From positions 558,001 through 622,000 of the forward strand of contig NZ_CP059068.1 of the NCBI RefSeq assembly GCF_017798165.1: a DNA stretch of 64,000 nucleotides. The letters are read 5' to 3'. Under the pieces are notes generated by a model, which did not search any database, was not told the origin of the DNA, and saw nothing but the letters and a program-made list of their open reading frames with translations. This document shows, piece after piece, positions 56,247 to 64,000 of this stretch. The position numbers were made by a program, and so were the translations under genes. The DNA comes from Rhodoferax sp. AJA081-3. Its GTDB lineage: Bacteria > Pseudomonadota > Gammaproteobacteria > Burkholderiales > Burkholderiaceae_C. Every line of letters starts with the position of its first letter. Position 1 is the first letter of the stretch.

Positions 56247-57323
56247 TCAGTCCGCCGTGATAACGCCGCGGCGCAACTGGTCGCGCTCCAGCGATTCGAA
56301 CAGAGCCTTGAAATTGCCCTCGCCAAATCCGTCGTCGCCCTTGCGCTGGATGAATTCAAAAAACACCGGGCCTAGCAACGTGGCCGAGAAAATTTGTAGC
56401 AGCAGGCGGCGGTCGCCTTCCTTGCTGACGCCGTCCAGCAGGATGCCGCGGCTTTGGAGCGCGGCCACGTCTTCACCGTGGTTGGGCAGGCGGCCTTCCA
56501 GCATTTCGTAGTAGGTGGCGGGGGGTGCGGTCATCAGCGGCACGCCGGCCGCTTTCAGGCTGTCTAGCGTGGCCACCAGGTTGTCGCAGATCAGGGCGAT
56601 GTGCTGAATGCCTTCGCCGTTGAACTGCATCAGGTACTCTTCGATCTGGCCGGTCTTGCCCGAGGCTTCTTCGTTCAGCGGGATGCGGATCATGCCGTCA
56701 GGGGCAGTCATGGCGCGGGATGTGAGGCCGGTGTATTCACCCTTGATGTCGAAGAAACGGATTTCGCGGAAGTTAAAAATCTTCTCGTAGAAACCACCCC
56801 AATAGGCCATGCGGCCACGGTACACATTGTGGGTCAGGTGGTCGATGAGTTTGAGGCCATGGCCAAAGGGGTGGCGGTCCACACCGGGCAGGAATTCAAA
56901 GTCGATGTCGTAGATGGACTTGCCGTCTTCAAAGCGGTCGATCAGGTACAGCGGTGCACCACCAATGCCCTTGATGGCCGGCAGGCGCAGCTCCATGGGG
57001 CCGGGCTGGATCTCGATGGGCTGTGCGCCCAGCTCCAGTGCGCGGGCATAGGCCTTGTGTGAATCGCGCACGCGGAAGGCCATGCTGCAGGCGCAGGGGC
57101 CGTGCTCGGCCGCGAAGTAGGCGGCGTGGCTCTTGGGCTCGCGGTTGATGATGAAATTGATGTCGCCCTGGCGGTACAGGTCTACATCTTTGGAGCGGTG
57201 ACGGGCCACATGTTTAAAACCCATTTGTTCAAAAATGGGCTCTATCAAGCCAGGTGTGGGGGATGCAAACTCGACAAACTCAAAACCCATGAGTCCCATC
57301 GGGTTGTCAAAAAGATCGGCCAT
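56247..57323 (-). CDS. hppD: 4-hydroxyphenylpyruvate dioxygenase
   Basis: Converts 4-hydroxyphenylpyruvate to homogentisate. The 358-residue protein has the iron ligands in [12 protein letters not shown] (His), EGIQHIAL (His) and [13 protein letters not shown] (Glu). ATG 57323 follows ACAGGAGCAACACA. First gene of the hppD-phhB-phhA operon, which takes phenylalanine to homogentisate except for a transaminase step encoded elsewhere. Divergent from an Lrp-family gene. Confidence 0.96.
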
Positions 57324-57386
57324 TGTGTTGCTCCTGTTATCTATGGATGAATGGCTAGATTGTGGACAAAAGCACGCGCACGGTGT

Positions 57387-57399
57387 GCGCAATTTGCGC
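57387..57399. promoter_or_regulatory. Candidate Lrp-type operator between hppD and the regulator gene
   Basis: Palindrome GCGCAATTTGCGC (6+1+6). A second symmetric pair, ATGCAT twice, lies at about 57415-57434 over the regulator start. Confidence 0.55.
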
Positions 57400-57431
57400 C
57401 GCCCCAAGCCAAAGATATGCATAATTCATGC

Positions 57432-57965
57432 ATGAATCAAGAGAAATATGACGATCTGCTGCTCGACAAGTTCGATATCAGCTTGTTGATCGCATTGCAA
57501 AAGGATGCCCACGCGACCAACCAGCAGGTCGGCGAGCAGATCCATTTGTCGGCCTCCCAGGTGAGCCGCCGCATCCAGCGGCTGGAGTCCACGGGCATCA
57601 TCCGCCGGTACGTGGCATTGCTGGACGCTGCTGCGATGGGCCTCGGCGTGCGTGCCATGAGTTACGTGACGCTGAGCCGCCAAGGCGGCGACGAAGGCCC
57701 GGCATTTGAGCGCGAGATCATCGCCATTCCCGAAGTGCTGGACTGTTATGCCGTGGCCGGTGAATCGGACTACATCATGCAAATCGTGGCAGCTGATCTG
57801 GGTGTGCTGTCGGAGTCGGTGTTGCGCAAGATCATGCGCATCAAAGGCGTGGCCAATATCCGCTCCAACATCGTGCTGAACTGCATCAAGTCCAGCACCG
57901 AATTGCCGCTGGGGCATATCGGCAAGGCGGATGGCGCGGCGCGCAAGGTGCGGATTGCGGGCTGA
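57432..57965 (+). CDS. Lrp/AsnC-family regulator, likely of aromatic amino acid catabolism
   Basis: A 178-residue regulator with N-terminal helix-turn-helix (TNQQVGEQIHLSASQVSRRI, then QRLESTGIIRRYVALLD) and a C-terminal RAM effector domain (CYAVAGESDYIMQIVAADL). ATG 57432 begins MNQEKYDDLLLDKFD. Its divergent position to hppD-phhB-phhA suggests it senses an aromatic amino acid and controls that operon; this is inference from layout. Confidence 0.88.
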   Translation: MNQEKYDDLLLDKFDISLLIALQKDAHATNQQVGEQIHLSASQVSRRIQRLESTGIIRRYVALLDAAAMGLGVRAMSYVTLSRQGGDEGPAFEREIIAIPEVLDCYAVAGESDYIMQIVAADLGVLSESVLRKIMRIKGVANIRSNIVLNCIKSSTELPLGHIGKADGAARKVRIAG

Positions 57966-57975
57966 GCTTGCTCAC

Positions 57976-59286
57976 CTACTTGGGTTCAAGCACCCGTGAG
58001 ATCATGACCTGGTCAACCCGGTTGTTGTCGACGTCCATCACCTCAAAGCGCCAACCCTGCCACAACACGTGATCGGTGCGCCGGGGAATACGGCGCAGCG
58101 ACACCATCAAGAATCCGGCCAGGGTGTCATATTGCCCAGGCATGGGCCACTCGGACAAATCCAGCACCCTCTGCAGATCCGCCACCGGGGTGACTCCGTC
58201 GGCCAGGAAGCTGCCATCCTCTCGGCGCAGGATCTGTTCCTCATCATGGGATGCCACCATGCTGCCCATTACGGTGCTCATCACGTCGTTGAGCGTAATG
58301 ACACCCACCACCAAGCTGTATTCGTTGACGATGACCGCAAAGTCCTCATGCGCCTGGCGAAACTGCGTCAGCATTTCGGCCAGGGTCAGCCGGTCCGGGA
58401 CGACAAGGACCTTCTTGACCAGACCGCCGTCGATGCAATGTGAAAGGGTTAGCGGTTTTTCCAACAAGACGCGCTGAAAGAGGTCCGTTGCGTCGACATA
58501 ACCGATCACCTCATCGATGCCGCTTGCGCCGCACACCAAGTAGGTTGAATGCGGGGATTCGGCAAGCCGGGTGCGCAGCAAGGTCTCATCATCACCAATG
58601 GTCAGAAACACGATGCGCTCGCGGGTCGTCATCGCGCTCTCCACGGTGCGCGTGTCGAGTTCGAATACGTTTTCGATGACCTGTTGTTCAGCGGACGCTA
58701 CCGCCCCGGATTGGATACCCGCTTCGGTGAGCGCCAGGATGTCCAGATAGGTGATCCGCTCGTCTCGGGTTTGCGCAAGCCCCAGCAGGCGTGACAAGGT
58801 GTCCGCCAGTTTGCTAAAACAAAACACCAGGGGTTTGAACAGCGTCAAGAGACCCAGCATCGGGCCCACCGTCAACATCGCCAACCGCTCCGGCTCGTTC
58901 ATGCCCAAGCGCTTGGGCACCAGGTCGGCCACAACGATAAACAGCGTAGTAACCGTCACAAAAGACAAGGTGGTTGCCAGGGGGCCACTGGTGCCTGGAT
59001 CCACGCCCAACCACAAGACAACCTGGTTGAAGTGGGGCGACAAAGCGCCATCCCCGACAACGCCACCCAGGATGGCAATCGTATTGAGACCAATCTGTAC
59101 CACGGTCACAAAGTGTCCGGGCGTGTTCTGCACCGCCAACACGCGCGCGGCGCGCCGGTCACCGCTATCGGCCAGTTGGCTCAGTTTGATGCGCCGCGCC
59201 GCAGCCATGGAGATCTCGGCGACCGAGAAGAAGGCTGATGCAGCGATCAGAATGGTTATCAAAAAAAGGCTGGTAGGGAGGTTCAT
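57976..59286 (-). CDS. CNNM/CorC-type membrane protein (hemolysin family)
   Basis: A 436-residue protein: an N-terminal CNNM (DUF21) domain with four hydrophobic segments and the typical ASAFFSVAEISMAAARRIKL, then a pair of CBS domains (ERIVFLTIGDDETLL; EYSLVVGVITLNDVM) and a C-terminal CorC/HlyC domain (LADGVTPVADLQRVL, DTLAGFLM, WRFEVMDVDNNRVDQVMI). Members mediate magnesium efflux or resistance. It converges on the Lrp gene with 10 bp between the stops. Confidence 0.92.
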   Translation of the reverse strand: MNLPTSLFLITILIAASAFFSVAEISMAAARRIKLSQLADSGDRRAARVLAVQNTPGHFVTVVQIGLNTIAILGGVVGDGALSPHFNQVVLWLGVDPGTSGPLATTLSFVTVTTLFIVVADLVPKRLGMNEPERLAMLTVGPMLGLLTLFKPLVFCFSKLADTLSRLLGLAQTRDERITYLDILALTEAGIQSGAVASAEQQVIENVFELDTRTVESAMTTRERIVFLTIGDDETLLRTRLAESPHSTYLVCGASGIDEVIGYVDATDLFQRVLLEKPLTLSHCIDGGLVKKVLVVPDRLTLAEMLTQFRQAHEDFAVIVNEYSLVVGVITLNDVMSTVMGSMVASHDEEQILRREDGSFLADGVTPVADLQRVLDLSEWPMPGQYDTLAGFLMVSLRRIPRRTDHVLWQGWRFEVMDVDNNRVDQVMISRVLEPK

Positions 59287-59394
59287 TTCTCTGGCAACTA
59301 TAGCCGTTCAATACGCAGAAATGAAGGACTGCTCTGCCCACTGGGGGCTACCGGACCGCGTGCGGTGGTGTGCTTTGCCAGTGAACCTCTACCT

Positions 59395-59528
59395 CATAGA
59401 AACTCCTGATTTAATAGCAGAAGAAGTCCATTTTTCGGGGGCTAAAGGTCAATTCTGCATAGAGGATATTCTGGAACCAGACTATTGGCACGCTACCCCG
59501 CCTCACTCACAGATATTGAGACACTCCC
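59395..59528 (+). repeat. Array repeat unit E: interspersed element plus adjoining conserved segment
   Basis: Contains the element ATAGC-N18-GGGGGCTAAAGGTC (59414-59450) preceded by ACTCCTGATTTA and followed by CATAGAGGATATTCTGGAA and a segment ending like the IS256 right terminus. The same order is found at 62380-63973 once the IS is removed. The 307-bp gap 59287-59593 holds this unit and no gene. Confidence 0.8.
59498..59528 (+). repeat. Solo IS256-like terminal repeat
   Basis: CCGCCTCACTCACAGATATT, then GAGACACTCCC. It matches the right end of the two IS copies at 27 of 31 positions, without any transposase beside it. Confidence 0.75.
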
Positions 59529-59538
59529 ACCTTTCTGC

Positions 59539-59552
59539 GGGGGCTATAGGCC
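59539..59552 (+). repeat. 3' half of the interspersed element
   Basis: GGGGGCTATAGGCC followed by GATTTCAC. The 5' ATAGC block is not recognisable at the expected distance. Confidence 0.6.
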
Positions 59553-59593
59553 GATTTCACAAAATTGCATCGGTGAAAACCAGAGGTTTGCGA

Positions 59594-60055
59594 TCAGGAT
59601 TTATGCGAAGGGTCCAAGCAGTCCTTCGCGATCTTCATGATGAGCGCCTTCTTGAATTCACCGCCTTCGATCTTTGACCATAGGGCGCCGGTGTGTACAC
59701 AGTCTGCGCAAAACGGCGCAACCTTCACGCGCAAGAACTCAACAAACGTGCGCAAATCTTCGTCGCTAGCATTTCCACTGCAGGCCCCCTCAATCATCTC
59801 AGCATCTCCAGGAAACAGCGAAGTCAAACGCACCTGAATATGGCACTTGTTTTCCGCAGGAAAGGCCACAGCACCAAGGCTCTTGAGCCATATCCCCAGA
59901 TTAACGTAGTACTTGTCATCAAAGTCTGACTTCTGAAGGTTCAAAACCACTATTGAGTCGTCCCCGTCTAAGAACCAGGATTGCCCATTGTTCGCAAAAC
60001 GCGCTGCTTTCAGAACGCCGCCAATTGCTTTCTTGAAGGTAGTTTTTTCCATCAT
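59594..60055 (-). CDS. DUF4304 domain protein, possible orphan immunity protein
   Basis: A 153-residue protein (MMEKTTFKKAIGGVLKAARF, NGQSWFLDGDDSIVVLNLQK, YYVNLGIWLKSLG) matching the DUF4304 family, whose members are often found next to Rhs and other polymorphic toxins. It lies directly downstream, on the same strand, of a truncated Rhs tip. I infer an immunity gene that outlived its toxin. Start at the double Met (60055); the frame is open further upstream without a better start. Confidence 0.7.
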   Translation of the reverse strand: MMEKTTFKKAIGGVLKAARFANNGQSWFLDGDDSIVVLNLQKSDFDDKYYVNLGIWLKSLGAVAFPAENKCHIQVRLTSLFPGDAEMIEGACSGNASDEDLRTFVEFLRVKVAPFCADCVHTGALWSKIEGGEFKKALIMKIAKDCLDPSHKS

Positions 60056-60137
60056 TGCCGATACTTGTTTACAGACGAAGTTTGGCTCGTCACAACACTC
60101 CCCTTTTGCGCGTTCCATATGGGCAGGCAAGAGACTA

Positions 60138-60264
60138 TCAGTCTAGCCATCCATTGGTACGAAACAGATTTCCGACCTCAGCATCAAAAGCTCCGCAATC
60201 AAAATCCTTTATTTTTAGCTCGGGCAGCAACTTGACAGCACGATAGACGGACGCTGCCACCAAC
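60138..60264 (-). pseudogene. Orphan C-terminal coding fragment after the truncated Rhs tip
   Basis: In the frame shifted by one from the Rhs core, an open stretch of about 45 codons reads IELVAASVYRAVKLLPELK, then IKDFDCGAFDAEVG and LFRTNGWLD before a stop at 60138. It has no start and begins at the point where the Rhs core ends (NRY-stop). It looks like the 3' end of a lost toxin or immunity gene joined to the core by a deletion. Confidence 0.45.
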
Positions 60265-60741
60265 TCAATACCGATTGAACGAGTGAATGTTGTCTTCTTT
60301 GAAGTCAACAGGATCAACGCCCATAAACCGCCTCAACACCGGGTCGTAATACCGCGCCCCCATGTAACTCAAGCCCGTGGCCGGATCAAACTGCTTGCCC
60401 GCAAAGCCCAGCTTGTTCTTGCTGTAGCCCGCCTGGTTGTTCAGCCGCTCGCCGTAGGGGCGATAGTTTTCTTTCCAGATGACGGCACCCGCGCCATCGG
60501 TGGCCAGCATGGGGCTGCCGGAGATGTCGTTGTGGAAATAGGTGACCGCTGGCTCGGCTACCTCGGGCACCACCGCGTTGGAGTTGGCCGACCAAGCGCT
60601 GACACCGGCTGTGGTGGTGGTGCGCACCTTGCAGAAGTAAGACGTGCCATTGGTCAGGCCCGTCACGTTGATGGGTGAACTGGCGCCATTGGTGGCAAAG
60701 GCACCGCAGGCTGCGGTGTGGTTGACTAGCGTGCCGCCACT
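60265..60741 (-). pseudogene. Truncated Rhs tip (fibronectin-like segment plus Rhs core, toxin lost)
   Basis: From an in-frame TAG at 60742-60744 the frame reads a fibronectin-III-like segment (VTGLTNGTSYFCKVRTTT), then the Rhs-associated core: PVTYFHNDISG-type YFHNDISGSPMLATDGAG, WKENYRPYGERLNNQAG, FAGKQFDPATGLSYMGARYY, DPVLRRFMGVDPVDF and HSFNRY-stop. It has no start codon context and no upstream Rhs repeats, and ends where the other copy continues AYANNNPYKYIDPDG. Not expressed as such; a relic of a displaced tip. Confidence 0.85.
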
Positions 60742-60798
60742 CTACGAATACTCCTGATTCAATAGCGGAAGAGGTCCATTTCACGGGGGCTAGAGGCC
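60308..60798 (-). repeat. 491-bp Rhs-core duplication, copy 1
   Basis: Aligns to 61937-62427 with a constant offset of 1629 bp from one end to the other, that is without net gaps, and with few substitutions. It covers the Rhs core, the fibronectin-like segment and the interspersed element. Confidence 0.9.
60762..60798 (+). repeat. Interspersed element G, upstream edge of the truncated Rhs tip
   Basis: ATAGC, 18 bases, GGGGGCTAGAGGCC. Lies 20 bp before the 5' end of the truncated Rhs tip. The 316-bp gap 60667-60982 otherwise holds the fibronectin-like part of that tip and a hairpin. Confidence 0.87.
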
Positions 60799-60845
60799 GA
60801 TTTGGCGCGGAGTGTTAGTGCGCCACCCTGTGGCCGATAGAAGAA

Positions 60846-60898
60846 GCCACCCGAACCCCCACAGCTTCAGCAGATGGCAGGGGGTGTGGGTGGTTTTT
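60846..60898 (+). other. Hairpin with T tail in the Rhs array
   Basis: CCACCC and ACCCCC arms pair with GGGGGT and GGGTGG, followed by TTTTTC. It looks like a terminator on the plus strand but no plus-strand gene precedes it. Confidence 0.4.
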
Positions 60899-60982
60899 CT
60901 ACTTTAGAGATAGAGGAAAACTGGCTGCTAGCCCTAGTAGATATTCCGCTACTAGCTATTGATTTTGCAGCGACGGAACAGA

Positions 60983-61381
60983 TCAACTATCGATCGGCAG
61001 GTACTGACAAGCTAGCTGATTACAAACGTAGAGCGCGATCAGCCTCGCGGACCTGATTTCCTCAAATCGATCTAGGAATGTTGACAACTCGATTGACAGG
61101 AAGTAGTCGATATCCCACCGCTGTAGGCTAGATTCATCTAGTGGCAGGTTGTGGATCAAATTCAAAACTACCCCAGCACCTATGAAGTCCGAACTCTTAA
61201 TCTGAGTGATCGCCTCAGCGACACACAGTCTAATGATCTTCCTTGTACTCAAGATCGTTATTGAGTCCAGACTAGCAAGTACGTCCTCAAGACATTCGAC
61301 AACATTTTCATTTGATCGCCCTCCTAGCAAAATATTCCTGCACGAGATCAGGCAACCGGCAACCGTATTGTTTGGTTTCAT
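60983..61381 (-). CDS. Candidate immunity protein for the ParB-like Rhs toxin
   Basis: A 132-residue, mostly helical protein (MKPNNTVAGCLISCRNILLG near the start; CVAEAITQIKSSDFIGAG; YFLSIELSTFLDRFEEI). No family recognised. ATG 61381 follows CCTTGAGGATATTA, a ribosome-binding site that overlaps the toxin stop; a TTG at 61393 would overlap the toxin gene itself. Position immediately after an Rhs toxin tip is the usual place of the cognate immunity gene. Base composition is AT-rich like other immunity genes. Confidence 0.6.
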   Translation of the reverse strand: MKPNNTVAGCLISCRNILLGGRSNENVVECLEDVLASLDSITILSTRKIIRLCVAEAITQIKSSDFIGAGVVLNLIHNLPLDESSLQRWDIDYFLSIELSTFLDRFEEIRSARLIALYVCNQLACQYLPIDS

Positions 61382-61389
61382 TAATATCC

Positions 61390-62370
61390 TCAAGGTGTGA
61401 ACGTCAAATCGGCTGGCGTTTTATATGCCCCCCAAGGCAATTCAACTTTTGTGACGGGAACCTCAGCAACACCGGCCTTCGGGGCGGCGAGCGCTCGATG
61501 ATGACCATCCAAAATATGCAGCTTACCCCCGTTTTCGGTGACAGTAAGCGGTTCCTTTATTCCTTCGGCCCGAATATTCTTCGTGAGCTTGTCGAGTGCC
61601 TTATTGCTCATGGTTTTCCCATGAGTCGGAATCAGCTCACCAACCTTGGCAGTCTCTTGTGCTGATGCCTTTGCAGCATTGGCGGAAGCTGTTGCTCCCA
61701 CACGCAGGGCCGCCACACCCTCTCCAAGAACTGCAAAAATCCCATCACCAGCGGCCATCAGCGCCACGTGCGTATAGACACTAACCAAGCCGTCCTGAAA
61801 CGTCTTGAACTCAGCCTCCATGTTCGGGAAATACGCACCTACTGCCTGCCGCCCATCGGGATCAATGTATTTATAAGGATTGTTATTGGCGTAAGCGTAC
61901 CGATTGAAGCTATGGATATTGCCGGCGCCAAACTCCACAGGATCAACGCCCATAAACCGCCCCAACACCGGGTCGTAATACCGCGCACCCATATACGACA
62001 AGCCCGTGGCTGGATCGAACTGCTTGCCCGCAAAGCCCAGCTTGTTCTTGTTTGAGCCCGCCTGGTTGTTCAGCCGCTCGCCGTAGGGGCGGTAGTTTTC
62101 TTTCCAGATGACGGCACCCGCTCCATCGGTGGCCAGCATGGGGCTGCCGGAGATGTCGTTGTGGAAATAGGTGACCGGTGGCTCGGCTACCTCAGGCACC
62201 ACCGCGTTGGAGTTGGCCGACCAGGCGCTGACTCCGACCGTGGTGGTGGTGCGCACCTTGCAGAAGTAAGACGTGCCGTTGGTCAGGCCCGTCACGTTGA
62301 TGGGTGAACTGGCGCCATTGGTGGCGAAGGCACCGCAGGCTGCGGTGTGGTTGACAAGCGTGCCGCTAGT
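61390..62370 (-). pseudogene. Orphan Rhs tip with C-terminal ParB-like nuclease domain
   Basis: The frame is open from an in-frame TAG at 62371-62373. It encodes a fibronectin-like segment, the Rhs core ending GRFMGVDPVEF, then AYANNNPYKYIDPDGRQ, a hydrophobic linker (HVALMAAGDGIFAVLGEGVA) and a ParB/sulfiredoxin-like domain with NIRAEGIKEPLTV, HILDGHHRALAA and AEVPVTKVELPW. ParB-like domains occur as nuclease toxins of polymorphic toxin systems. The large N-terminal Rhs part, start codon and promoter are absent, so it is a silent or displaced tip; an internal ATG (62295) could only give a core plus toxin fragment. Confidence 0.8.
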
Positions 62371-62427
62371 CTACGAATACTCCTGATTCAATAGCATAAG
62401 AAGTCCATTTTGCGTGTTCTAGAGACC
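61937..62427 (-). repeat. 491-bp Rhs-core duplication, copy 2
   Basis: Counterpart of 60308-60798; both end at the last base of the interspersed element. Confidence 0.9.
62391..62427 (+). repeat. Interspersed element H, upstream edge of the ParB-like Rhs tip
   Basis: ATAGC, 18 bases, then the decayed block GTGTTCTAGAGACC. Identified by position and spacing relative to copy G. Confidence 0.7.
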
Positions 62428-62445
62428 GATTTTACATAGAGGACA

Positions 62446-63909
62446 GAGCCTGTCAGAAATTTTGTGTGCGAGGCATAACATGTCAACAAGGAGCATGAAT
62501 GCCAAGCAAGACAAAGAGCGCCACGGTGGCGGACAACGCAACACAACTTCAAATCCCAGCCGAGTTGCTGGACCAACTGGTGACCGGCCCCATGACAGCC
62601 GGTCAAGTCCAGGGACTGTTTGACCAGTTCAAAAAGGCCGTGCTGGAGCGGGCACTGGCTGGAGAAATGAGCCATCACCTGGGCTACGCGCCGGGCAAGG
62701 CCAAACCCGAGGGAGCGCCTGCAAACCACCGCAACGGCAAAAGCGCTAAGACGGTACTGACCGATGCAGGAGCCCTGCGCATTGACGTCCCGCGCGACCG
62801 GGAAGGCACGTTCGAACCCCAACTCATCGGCAAACACGAGCGCCGTTTCACCGGCTTTGACGACAAGATCATCGCCATGTACGCGCGTGGCATGACCGTG
62901 CGCGAGATACAGGCGCGTTTTGAGCGAGATGTACTCGGTCGATGTATCGCCCGACCTCATCAGCCGCGTGACTGACGAAGTCATGAGCGAGGTGACAGCC
63001 TGGCAGAGCCGCCCATTGGAATCCATGTACCCGGTGGTGTTCTTCGATGCGCTGCGCGTCAAGATTCGTGAGGACGGGGTGGTGCGCTCCAAGGCCGTGT
63101 ACTTGGCCCTGGGCGTGCTGGCCGATGGCAGCCGCGACATCCTGGGGATCTGGGTCGAGAACACCGAAGGGGCCAAATTCTGGATGAAAGTGTTCAACGA
63201 TTTGAAGACCCGAGGTGTGCAGGATATCCTGATTGCCGTCACCGACGGGCTCAAAGGCATGCCAGAGGCCCTGGGCGCGGTGTTCCCGGCCACGACACTG
63301 CAAACGTGCATCGTGCACCTGATACGCAACAGCCTGGACTTTGCCAGTTGGAAGGATCGCAAGGCGCTGGCTGCGGCCATCAAACCCATCTACACGGCGG
63401 TGAGCGCAGAGGCAGCACAGGCTGAACTCGATGCATTTGAGGCAGGTCCCTGGGGCCAGAAGTTCCCCACCGTGGTGGGAGCCTGGCGCAGGGCTTGGGA
63501 CAGAGTGATTCCCTTCTTTGCGTTCCCGCCCGAGGTACGCCGTGTGATCTACACGACCAATGCCATTGAGAGCGTAAATGCCAGACTGCGCAAGATCATC
63601 AAGTCAGAGGACACTTCCCCAGTGACGATGCGGCCACAAACTGATCTGGCTGGCACTGCGCAACATTACCGAGGATTGGGGACGTGCGGCTAACCACTGG
63701 AAATCAGCCATGAACCAGTTTGCCATCCTCTACGGCGACAGGTTCACGCAGCCCACTCACGGGGGTGCAAAATGAAGGAGCTGAACCCTGCCACTCAGGG
63801 TTCTACCGGGGGGGGCCTCCGGCGGCCTGGCAGGGGCCTTAGTTTGAATAAAATTTACCCATCAGCTGATTTCTGAAACCGCCTCACACACAGAAATTCT
63901 GACACTCCC
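62446..63909 (+). mobile_element. IS256-family insertion sequence, copy 2 (1464 bp)
   Basis: Same ends as copy 1 (GAGCCTGTCAG and complement GGGAGTGTCAG) and the same orientation. Flanked by a perfect 8-bp duplication AGAGGACA (62438-62445 and 63910-63917). Removing it and one duplication restores an uninterrupted array unit like the one at 59395-59528. It differs from copy 1 by a handful of indels and hardly any substitutions. Confidence 0.93.
62499..63775 (+). pseudogene. IS256-family transposase, multiple frameshifts
   Basis: Identical to copy 1 over long stretches, but with an extra base at about 62914 (GGCGCGTTTTGAG instead of GGCGTTTTTGAG), a missing C at about 63606 (AAGTCAGAGG instead of AAGTCCAGAGG) and a missing base at about 63641 (CCACAAACTG instead of CCACCAAGCTG). 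It has the C that copy 1 lacks. The combination of both copies predicts one intact 425-residue transposase. Confidence 0.9.
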
Positions 63910-63942
63910 AGAGGACATTCTGGAAGCAGGCTATTGGGCAGC

Positions 63943-63973
63943 CCGCCTCACTCACAGAAATTCAGACAGGCTC
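63943..63973 (+). repeat. Solo IS256-like terminal repeat, second relic
   Basis: CCGCCTCACTCACAGAAATT, then CAGACAGGCTC. Its last bases are the complement of GAGCC, the left end of the IS, so it is a left-end-like terminus in inverted orientation. The preceding 63910-63942 matches 59460-59497; 63974-64000 is AT-rich and shows no gene. Confidence 0.7.
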
Positions 63974-64000
63974 AAGAATGAAATTTTTGTTTCCTTTTCT

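What the first reader, a model, noticed from the sequence alone, without database searches (positions are those of the whole stretch)
59395..63973. Modular array of displaced Rhs tips bounded by the interspersed element
Reading the minus strand, the order is element H, ParB-like tip, immunity candidate, element G, truncated tip, DUF4304 gene, element E. The two tips share a 491-bp block with no net gaps whose outer edge is the last base of the element, and both are cut at the same in-frame TAG in the fibronectin-like segment. Thus each unit is element + core + toxin tip + immunity gene, without promoter or start. The element may have been the crossover point for duplicating or importing tips; unit E marks a third position whose tip is gone. 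A link between a short interspersed repeat and Rhs tip exchange would be new to me.
Basis: partly seen in the sequence, partly recalled or inferred. Interest (0 to 1): 0.75.

Follow-up and report, generated by a model that had tools for sequence, protein, structure and literature searches.

The report
Rhs toxin-tip array with hitchhiking repeat
Next to a complete bacterial competition-toxin gene lie two older, displaced toxin-gene ends (one with its toxin part lost) and a third worn-away one, a known way such genes store spare tips; the short repeat between them was probably copied along rather than driving the exchange.

Summary
On the minus strand lie displaced Rhs tip units H (ParB-like tip, linked small gene), G (core stub, tip lost, DUF4304 gene) and a decayed third, E. 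The full-length gene lies just past the window edge: 2053 aa, M6 peptidase, fn3, Rhs core, HNH-like tip, then a DUF4265 gene. Its core matches unit H at 425 of 426 bases; G differs from both at the same 23 sites. So the last exchange was between main gene and H, inside the core. This is the displaced-tip layout of Jackson 2009 and Koskiniemi 2014.

The element is not supported as crossover point. It has at least 211 copies in this genome, also occurs in 11 of 36 congeners searched, and 22 of 37 sampled copies sit just 3' of a gene. Two other Rhs loci of this genome show background density. Array copies E, G, H form one clade, and H-E homology crosses the element. The junction looks like a founder junction copied with each unit.

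In four other arrays some or all units also share a non-coding leader before the core; hairpins there are terminator-like only in part. New member of a known kind; the fixed cassette edge is the interesting part.

The parts
62446..63909 (+). IS256-family (Mutator) insertion sequence; transposase frame split into ORFs 62499-62975 and 62920-63693
   Evidence: Pfam Transposase_mut E 1e-84 for the second ORF; seven other places match at a listed 100%, six over nearly full length; 8-bp direct repeats TGTCCTCT at 63910-63917 and 62438-62445
63910..63968 (-). diverged IS256-type end plus prefix upstream of element H, repeated upstream of E
   Evidence: 84% to 59461-59523
62378..62432 (-). interspersed element H
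61940..62367 (-). unit H core fragment, 425 of 426 bases identical to the full-length gene
61390..61939 (-). unit H toxin tip, ParB-like
   Evidence: ParB_N E 4e-5, below curated cut-off; 81% to the tip of a long Rhs frame in Pelomonas
60983..61378 (-). immunity candidate of unit H (131 aa from ATG)
   Evidence: 70% homologue directly after both ParB-tip copies in Pelomonas L100/L113
60838..60900 (-). GC-rich hairpin followed by CTTCTTCT between the immunity gene and element G; terminator-like by eye only
   Evidence: fold of 60815-60900 -34.4 kcal/mol, z -1.63, 12 of 200 shuffles as good; not reported by the terminator scan
60749..60803 (-). interspersed element G
60265..60738 (-). unit G core fragment, cut by a stop after FNRY; tip lost
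59594..60055 (-). DUF4304 gene, possible orphan immunity gene
   Evidence: PF14137 E 5e-13; role inferred from position only
59532..59557 (-). truncated interspersed element F, 36 bp after the DUF4304 stop
59461..59523 (-). second copy of the IS256-type end plus prefix
59401..59455 (-). interspersed element E
59338..59391 (-). decayed core (fn3) remnant of the third unit
   Evidence: 36 of 54 identical

Best explanation
This is the displaced-tip tail of a polymorphic-toxin (Rhs) locus. New tips join the full-length gene by homologous recombination in the 3' core; the old tip and its immunity gene are pushed downstream without a start or export signal and decay there: H intact, G tip lost, E almost gone. 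The unit can be read as core - tip - immunity - 3' gene-end element. The founding event joined the 3' element of the locus to a point inside the last fn3 segment (inferred). Later exchanges recombine in the core and copy that element|core junction unchanged (inferred). The element is a common repeat of this genome, often just 3' of genes, carried along, not a recombination site. Shown: anatomy, dispersal, clade of array elements, near-identity of main and H cores. Inferred: circle or tandem-duplication route, toxin and immunity activities, silence of the orphan tips.
For: Full-length gene with the same core adjacent. Main-H 425/426; G differs from both at the same 23 of 426 sites, 16 of the 23 synonymous. 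Stop at one codon column in three units. G+C 62.4% in H core, 52.7% in its tip, 46.0% in its immunity gene. Element 211 copies, 0 for the reversed-pattern control; of 37 non-array copies looked at, 22 sit -20 to 65 bp 3' of a same-strand ORF stop against 14 of 400 random positions. E, G, H clade, support 0.96 among 42 copies. H-E homology crosses the element. ParB tip with its small gene on a long Rhs frame in Pelomonas. Same layout in Aestuariibacter: 19 leader|core junctions at one base. Precedent: PMC2935791, PMC3967940 (passages).
Against: Published core fragments vary in length (PMC2935791), here the left edge is fixed. G lacks the prefix that H and E share (best match E 0.41), so one clean duplication does not explain all units. 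The element clade rests on 56 columns; E-G-H identities (44-47 of 56) are no higher than the best pair among non-array copies (47), and element F is not in the clade. G+C of the HNH tip (56.0%) hardly differs from the rest of its gene (57.5%). No strain comparison shows a gain or loss. The array end is disturbed by IS remnants, so the founder junction is not seen in its original setting.
Confidence: 0.85

Rival explanations
1. The element is the crossover or integration point by which tips are duplicated or imported.
For: Element lies directly before the core at the same place in G and H, and E matches.
Against: 211 dispersed copies, 22 of 37 sampled just 3' of an ORF; no enrichment at two other Rhs loci; H-E homology continues on both sides of the element; recent exchange tract lies in the core; the leader of another array is not a dispersed repeat.
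Confidence: 0.06
2. Units arose by tandem duplication inside this genome followed by tip replacement, rather than by integration of imported circles.
For: G and H share element plus core as one block; near-identical main and H cores.
Against: The small genes and tips after the cores belong to different families, so foreign tips must have entered at some time.
Confidence: 0.3
3. The IS256-family element moves the tips.
For: An IS copy and two IS-end-like fragments lie in the array.
Against: The IS has its own 8-bp target duplication and lies inside the prefix that H shares with E; its other copies lie far from the array; the IS-end fragments are direct repeats and not found before G.
Confidence: 0.04
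4. The element inserted independently three times at the same core position.
For: It is a dispersed repeat; array copies are no more alike than the best non-array pair.
Against: E, G and H copies are closest to each other and form a clade of 0.96 support; three hits at one codon column by chance are unlikely.
Confidence: 0.03

Closest known systems
Rhs C-terminal displacement arrays of Enterobacteriaceae (Jackson et al. 2009, PMC2935791; passages seen)
   Same: Dissociated tips with core fragments of the same clade downstream of the full gene, nearly identical cores, homologous recombination model; tip of unit H lower in G+C than its core.
   Different: Core fragments there vary in length; here the left edge is fixed and adjoins a dispersed repeat. 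The main protein has an M6/fn3 N-terminus and the YD repeats lie in a separate gene.
Salmonella LT2 rhs main / rhs orphan (Koskiniemi et al. 2014, PMC3967940; passages seen)
   Same: Orphan tip plus immunity gene without start; 522 bp of 95% identity to the main gene allows fusion, here about 426 bp at 99.8% (H) and 94.6% (G).
   Different: One orphan there; here two and a remnant, with a repeat and an IS between units.
Polymorphic toxin cassettes (Zhang et al. 2012, PMC3482391; passages seen)
   Same: Toxin-immunity cassettes downstream; Tox-ParB on RHS proteins.
   Different: DUF4265 and DUF4304 are not named in the held part of that text.
Short dispersed intergenic repeats (REP/BIME type, recalled)
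   Same: Many copies, intergenic, often 3' of genes, small conserved stem.
   Different: No credible Rfam match in window 57000-64000; no described family found in two searches.

Membership tests
Displaced Rhs tip array | full-length rhs gene directly upstream with the same core | tested here: met
   G000:C1:622479-628640; blocks of 93.6% (H) and 92.8% (G), core 425/426 to H
Displaced Rhs tip array | orphan fragments keep 3' core plus a different tip | tested here: met
   H: ParB-like, main: HNH-like (both below Pfam cut-off); G keeps core but lost its tip
Displaced Rhs tip array | orphans lack start and export signal | tested here: met
   stop at the same codon column; first in-frame start is a GTG inside the fn3 segment; no signal-peptide program was run
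Displaced Rhs tip array | immunity gene after each tip | tested here: inconclusive
   small genes present; conserved linkage shown only for the ParB unit
Displaced Rhs tip array | recombination can re-attach orphan tips | not testable with these tools
   needs strains or experiment
Site-specific recombination cassette | exchange breakpoints within the bounding element | tested here: not met
   main-H identity tract lies in the core; H-E homology crosses the element
Site-specific recombination cassette | element restricted to or enriched at the toxin loci | tested here: not met
   211 copies; one each in 20 and 19 kb around two other Rhs genes, genome mean one per 24.5 kb
IS256 family | Mutator transposase, inverted ends, 8-bp target duplication | tested here: met
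   inverted ends read by eye

The most novel reading that the evidence does not exclude
Rhs tip arrays of several bacteria are built from fixed-format cassettes, core - tip - immunity - 3' terminator or gene-end element, all descended from one founder junction in which the 3' end of the locus was joined to the core. The 3' hairpin would insulate the silent tips from read-through while the core stays the only recombination handle.
Probability: 0.2. Interest if true: 0.5.

Novelty: new member of a known kind. Interest (0 to 1): 0.35.

Why it matters
It adds a clear displaced-tip array outside the Enterobacteriaceae, with a near-perfect core tract marking the last tip change. The fixed unit edge, seen again in some other arrays, suggests such arrays may grow from one founder junction, and 3' hairpins may keep stored toxins silent; both can be tested.

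Tried and rejected
Element as site-specific recombination site: rejected. Element as intrinsic terminator in this genome: not supported; the three array copies fold no better than shuffles (z 0.94 to 1.57), two other copies at z -0.82 and -1.89, and the terminator scan (9 sites against 4.8 expected) puts none on the minus strand at elements E, G or H. The small stem GCTAT/ATAGC is conserved (166 of 185 cells paired in all 37 copies; partners slid by 1-3 columns give at most 120), but dealing the 3' letters anew gives the same (mean 165.8), so no covariation support. Sigma-70 promoter scan of 59300-64000: 3 found, 2.8 expected. Rfam: one match, E 0.71, below gathering. Element at congeners' Rhs loci: none in five fetched loci, flanks 1.5 kb or less; in two of the five no core was re-found by tblastn.

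Literature: on the element, (0 papers; one listing, about Bordetella); on a repeat at Rhs orphan boundaries, (0); on DUF4304 with immunity, (0); on terminators with orphans, then passages of PMC11278526 (predicted terminators after cdiI orphans) and PMC10210955 (uptake-sequence terminators at vgrG clusters). Searches gave the Rhs papers. All other papers were seen as listings only.

Other arrays: of 23 loci with two or more core hits I compared 15, on 14 contigs. Four contigs share a non-coding leader between units: Aestuariibacter (L134/L142), L161 (2 of 3 units), L159 (2 of 3), L155 (2 of 4, about 70 bp). Four share a leader with start and signal-peptide-like N-terminus (L112, L115, L117, L119). 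Six share neither. A strict test (stem of 6 or more, loop 3-8, T run) in 220 bp before the core found terminators in L161 3 of 3 units, L155 1 of 4, L120 1 of 1, and none in L159 (0 of 3), L153 (0 of 2), L134 (0 of 5), L165, L113, L141 (0 of 1 each). So the terminator part of the novel reading is weaker than I first had it; I lowered its odds from 0.3 to 0.2.

Full report
Setting. The window is G000:C1:558001-622000 of a 5.17-Mb single-contig genome. The finding lies at its right edge, so I fetched the stretch to 654000. Directly right of the window, on the same strand, lie a DUF4265 gene (622008-622454), a 2053-aa gene (622479-628640) and a 1134-aa YD-repeat gene (628667-632071). The 2053-aa protein has an M6 metalloprotease domain, F5/8-type and fn3 domains, the Rhs-associated core (87 bits against a cut-off of 32.5) and an HNH-like tip (20.0 bits, cut-off 21.4).

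Observation. H and G share 535 bp without net gaps at 91.0%; main and H share 517 bp at 93.6%, main and G 470 bp at 92.8%. Base by base, main and H differ at 1 of 426 core positions, and G differs from both at the same 23 sites, 16 synonymous and 7 non-synonymous changes. The tips diverge from the VDPV motif on. Homology with the main gene starts just after the short linker that follows the element; in the units the reading frame meets TAG, TAG and TGA at the same codon column. E is a real third unit: 36 of 54 bases after it match the last fn3 segment; the 10 positions of 75,892 that reach this score are nine fn3/core copies and E.

The element. Its 21-base signature has 211 genome copies at up to 3 mismatches, 114 and 97 per strand, with 0 for the reversed pattern. 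It was found in 11 of 36 congeners searched and in 0 of 24 other genomes of the order, with at most 15 candidates scored per genome. Of 37 non-array copies at hand, 22 lie -20 to 65 bp after a same-strand ORF stop (14 of 400 random positions; 8 of the 81 random positions outside ORFs), 19 face a convergent stop and 3 fall inside an ORF. These ORF calls are mechanical, and the 37 are the better-matching copies, not a random sample. Array copies E, G and H group together (support 0.96, 42 copies, 56 columns), though their identities of 44-47 of 56 are not above the best non-array pair (47), and F falls elsewhere. H and E also share about 60 bp further upstream, an IS256-like end plus prefix; before G it is not found (best E 0.41). 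Two other Rhs loci of this genome, found with this core, have one core match each (a second, weak one at E 0.24 in L167) and one element each in 20 and 19 kb, near the genome mean of one per 24.5 kb.

The IS. An IS256-family element with 8-bp target duplication sits between the DUF4265 gene and element H; seven other places match it at a listed 100%, six of them over nearly the full length. It lies inside the prefix shared with E, so it is a later insertion.

Relatives. A genome-contig scan gave 66 loci. The ParB tip and the 131-aa gene recur together at two places in Pelomonas sp. BJYL3 (81% and 70%), once on a long Rhs frame, which supports a toxin-immunity pair. In Aestuariibacter sp. AA17 one array has 20 leader matches, 19 of them meeting the core at the same base, spaced 1.2-2.1 kb; one of the 19 matches only the leader part after the hairpin. 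In that genome the leader has 19 matches in this array, 4 in a second cluster on another contig that I did not examine, and 3 weak matches (E above 0.07) elsewhere. So there the shared leader is array-specific, unlike the element here. Its GC hairpin has no T run between units; at the array end the hairpin stands without core and, by eye, reads as a bidirectional terminator. In L161 two units share a leader that begins with a terminator, and a 27-base piece of it recurs past the last unit, where no core was found. L159 and L155 share leaders in two units each; a strict terminator test finds none in L159 and one in L155. These cases suggest, without proving, that the inter-unit stretch is the 3' end of the preceding cassette. 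In the window a GC-rich hairpin follows the immunity gene of unit H, but 12 of 200 shuffles fold as well.

Interpretation. The anatomy is that of displaced tips as described in PMC2935791 and of the Salmonella main/orphan pair in PMC3967940 (passages seen). The element marks unit edges because it was next to the founder junction. What is not shown: how the founder junction arose, whether circles exist, and whether the orphan tips are active or silent.

Noticed in passing
L131/L134/L142 (NZ_JAOWKX010000011.1, about 67-96 kb): Aestuariibacter sp. AA17 carries 19 displaced Rhs tip units in about 28 kb that meet a common leader at the same core base; the leader is array-specific.
   Followed up: partly
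L102-L108, L110, L150; also L101, L109, L111, L114: Split Rhs: a YD-repeat protein ends (as in GDKRIAQRVSP), and core plus tip follow as a separate short ORF with a signal-peptide-like N-terminus (by eye). For the last four loci the YD end was not matched. The window genome has the same split with a much longer second protein.
   Followed up: partly
L112 7900-14000: Five tandem core-tip ORFs, each with its own start and signal-peptide-like N-terminus, so several tips could be expressed at once.
   Followed up: partly
G000 genome-wide; window 14296, 16395, 38539, 43209, 51265: About 60-bp dispersed repeat AAATYGGCCTCTAGCCCCCGTGAAAT...GCTAT...ATAGC, at least 211 copies, often just 3' of genes; no published description found.
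   Followed up: partly
L166 15372-16358 and 17482-18469: 988-bp direct repeat at 99.3% at the 5' end of another Rhs-type gene (2105 aa) of this genome.
   Followed up: no
window 60143-60290 (-): Open stretch IELVAASVYRAVKLLPELKIKDFDCGAFDAEVGNLFRTNGWL after the G core stub, perhaps a remnant of another gene.
   Followed up: no
L100/L113 (Pelomonas sp. BJYL3): ParB tip plus the small gene present twice about 12.7 kb apart on one contig.
   Followed up: no
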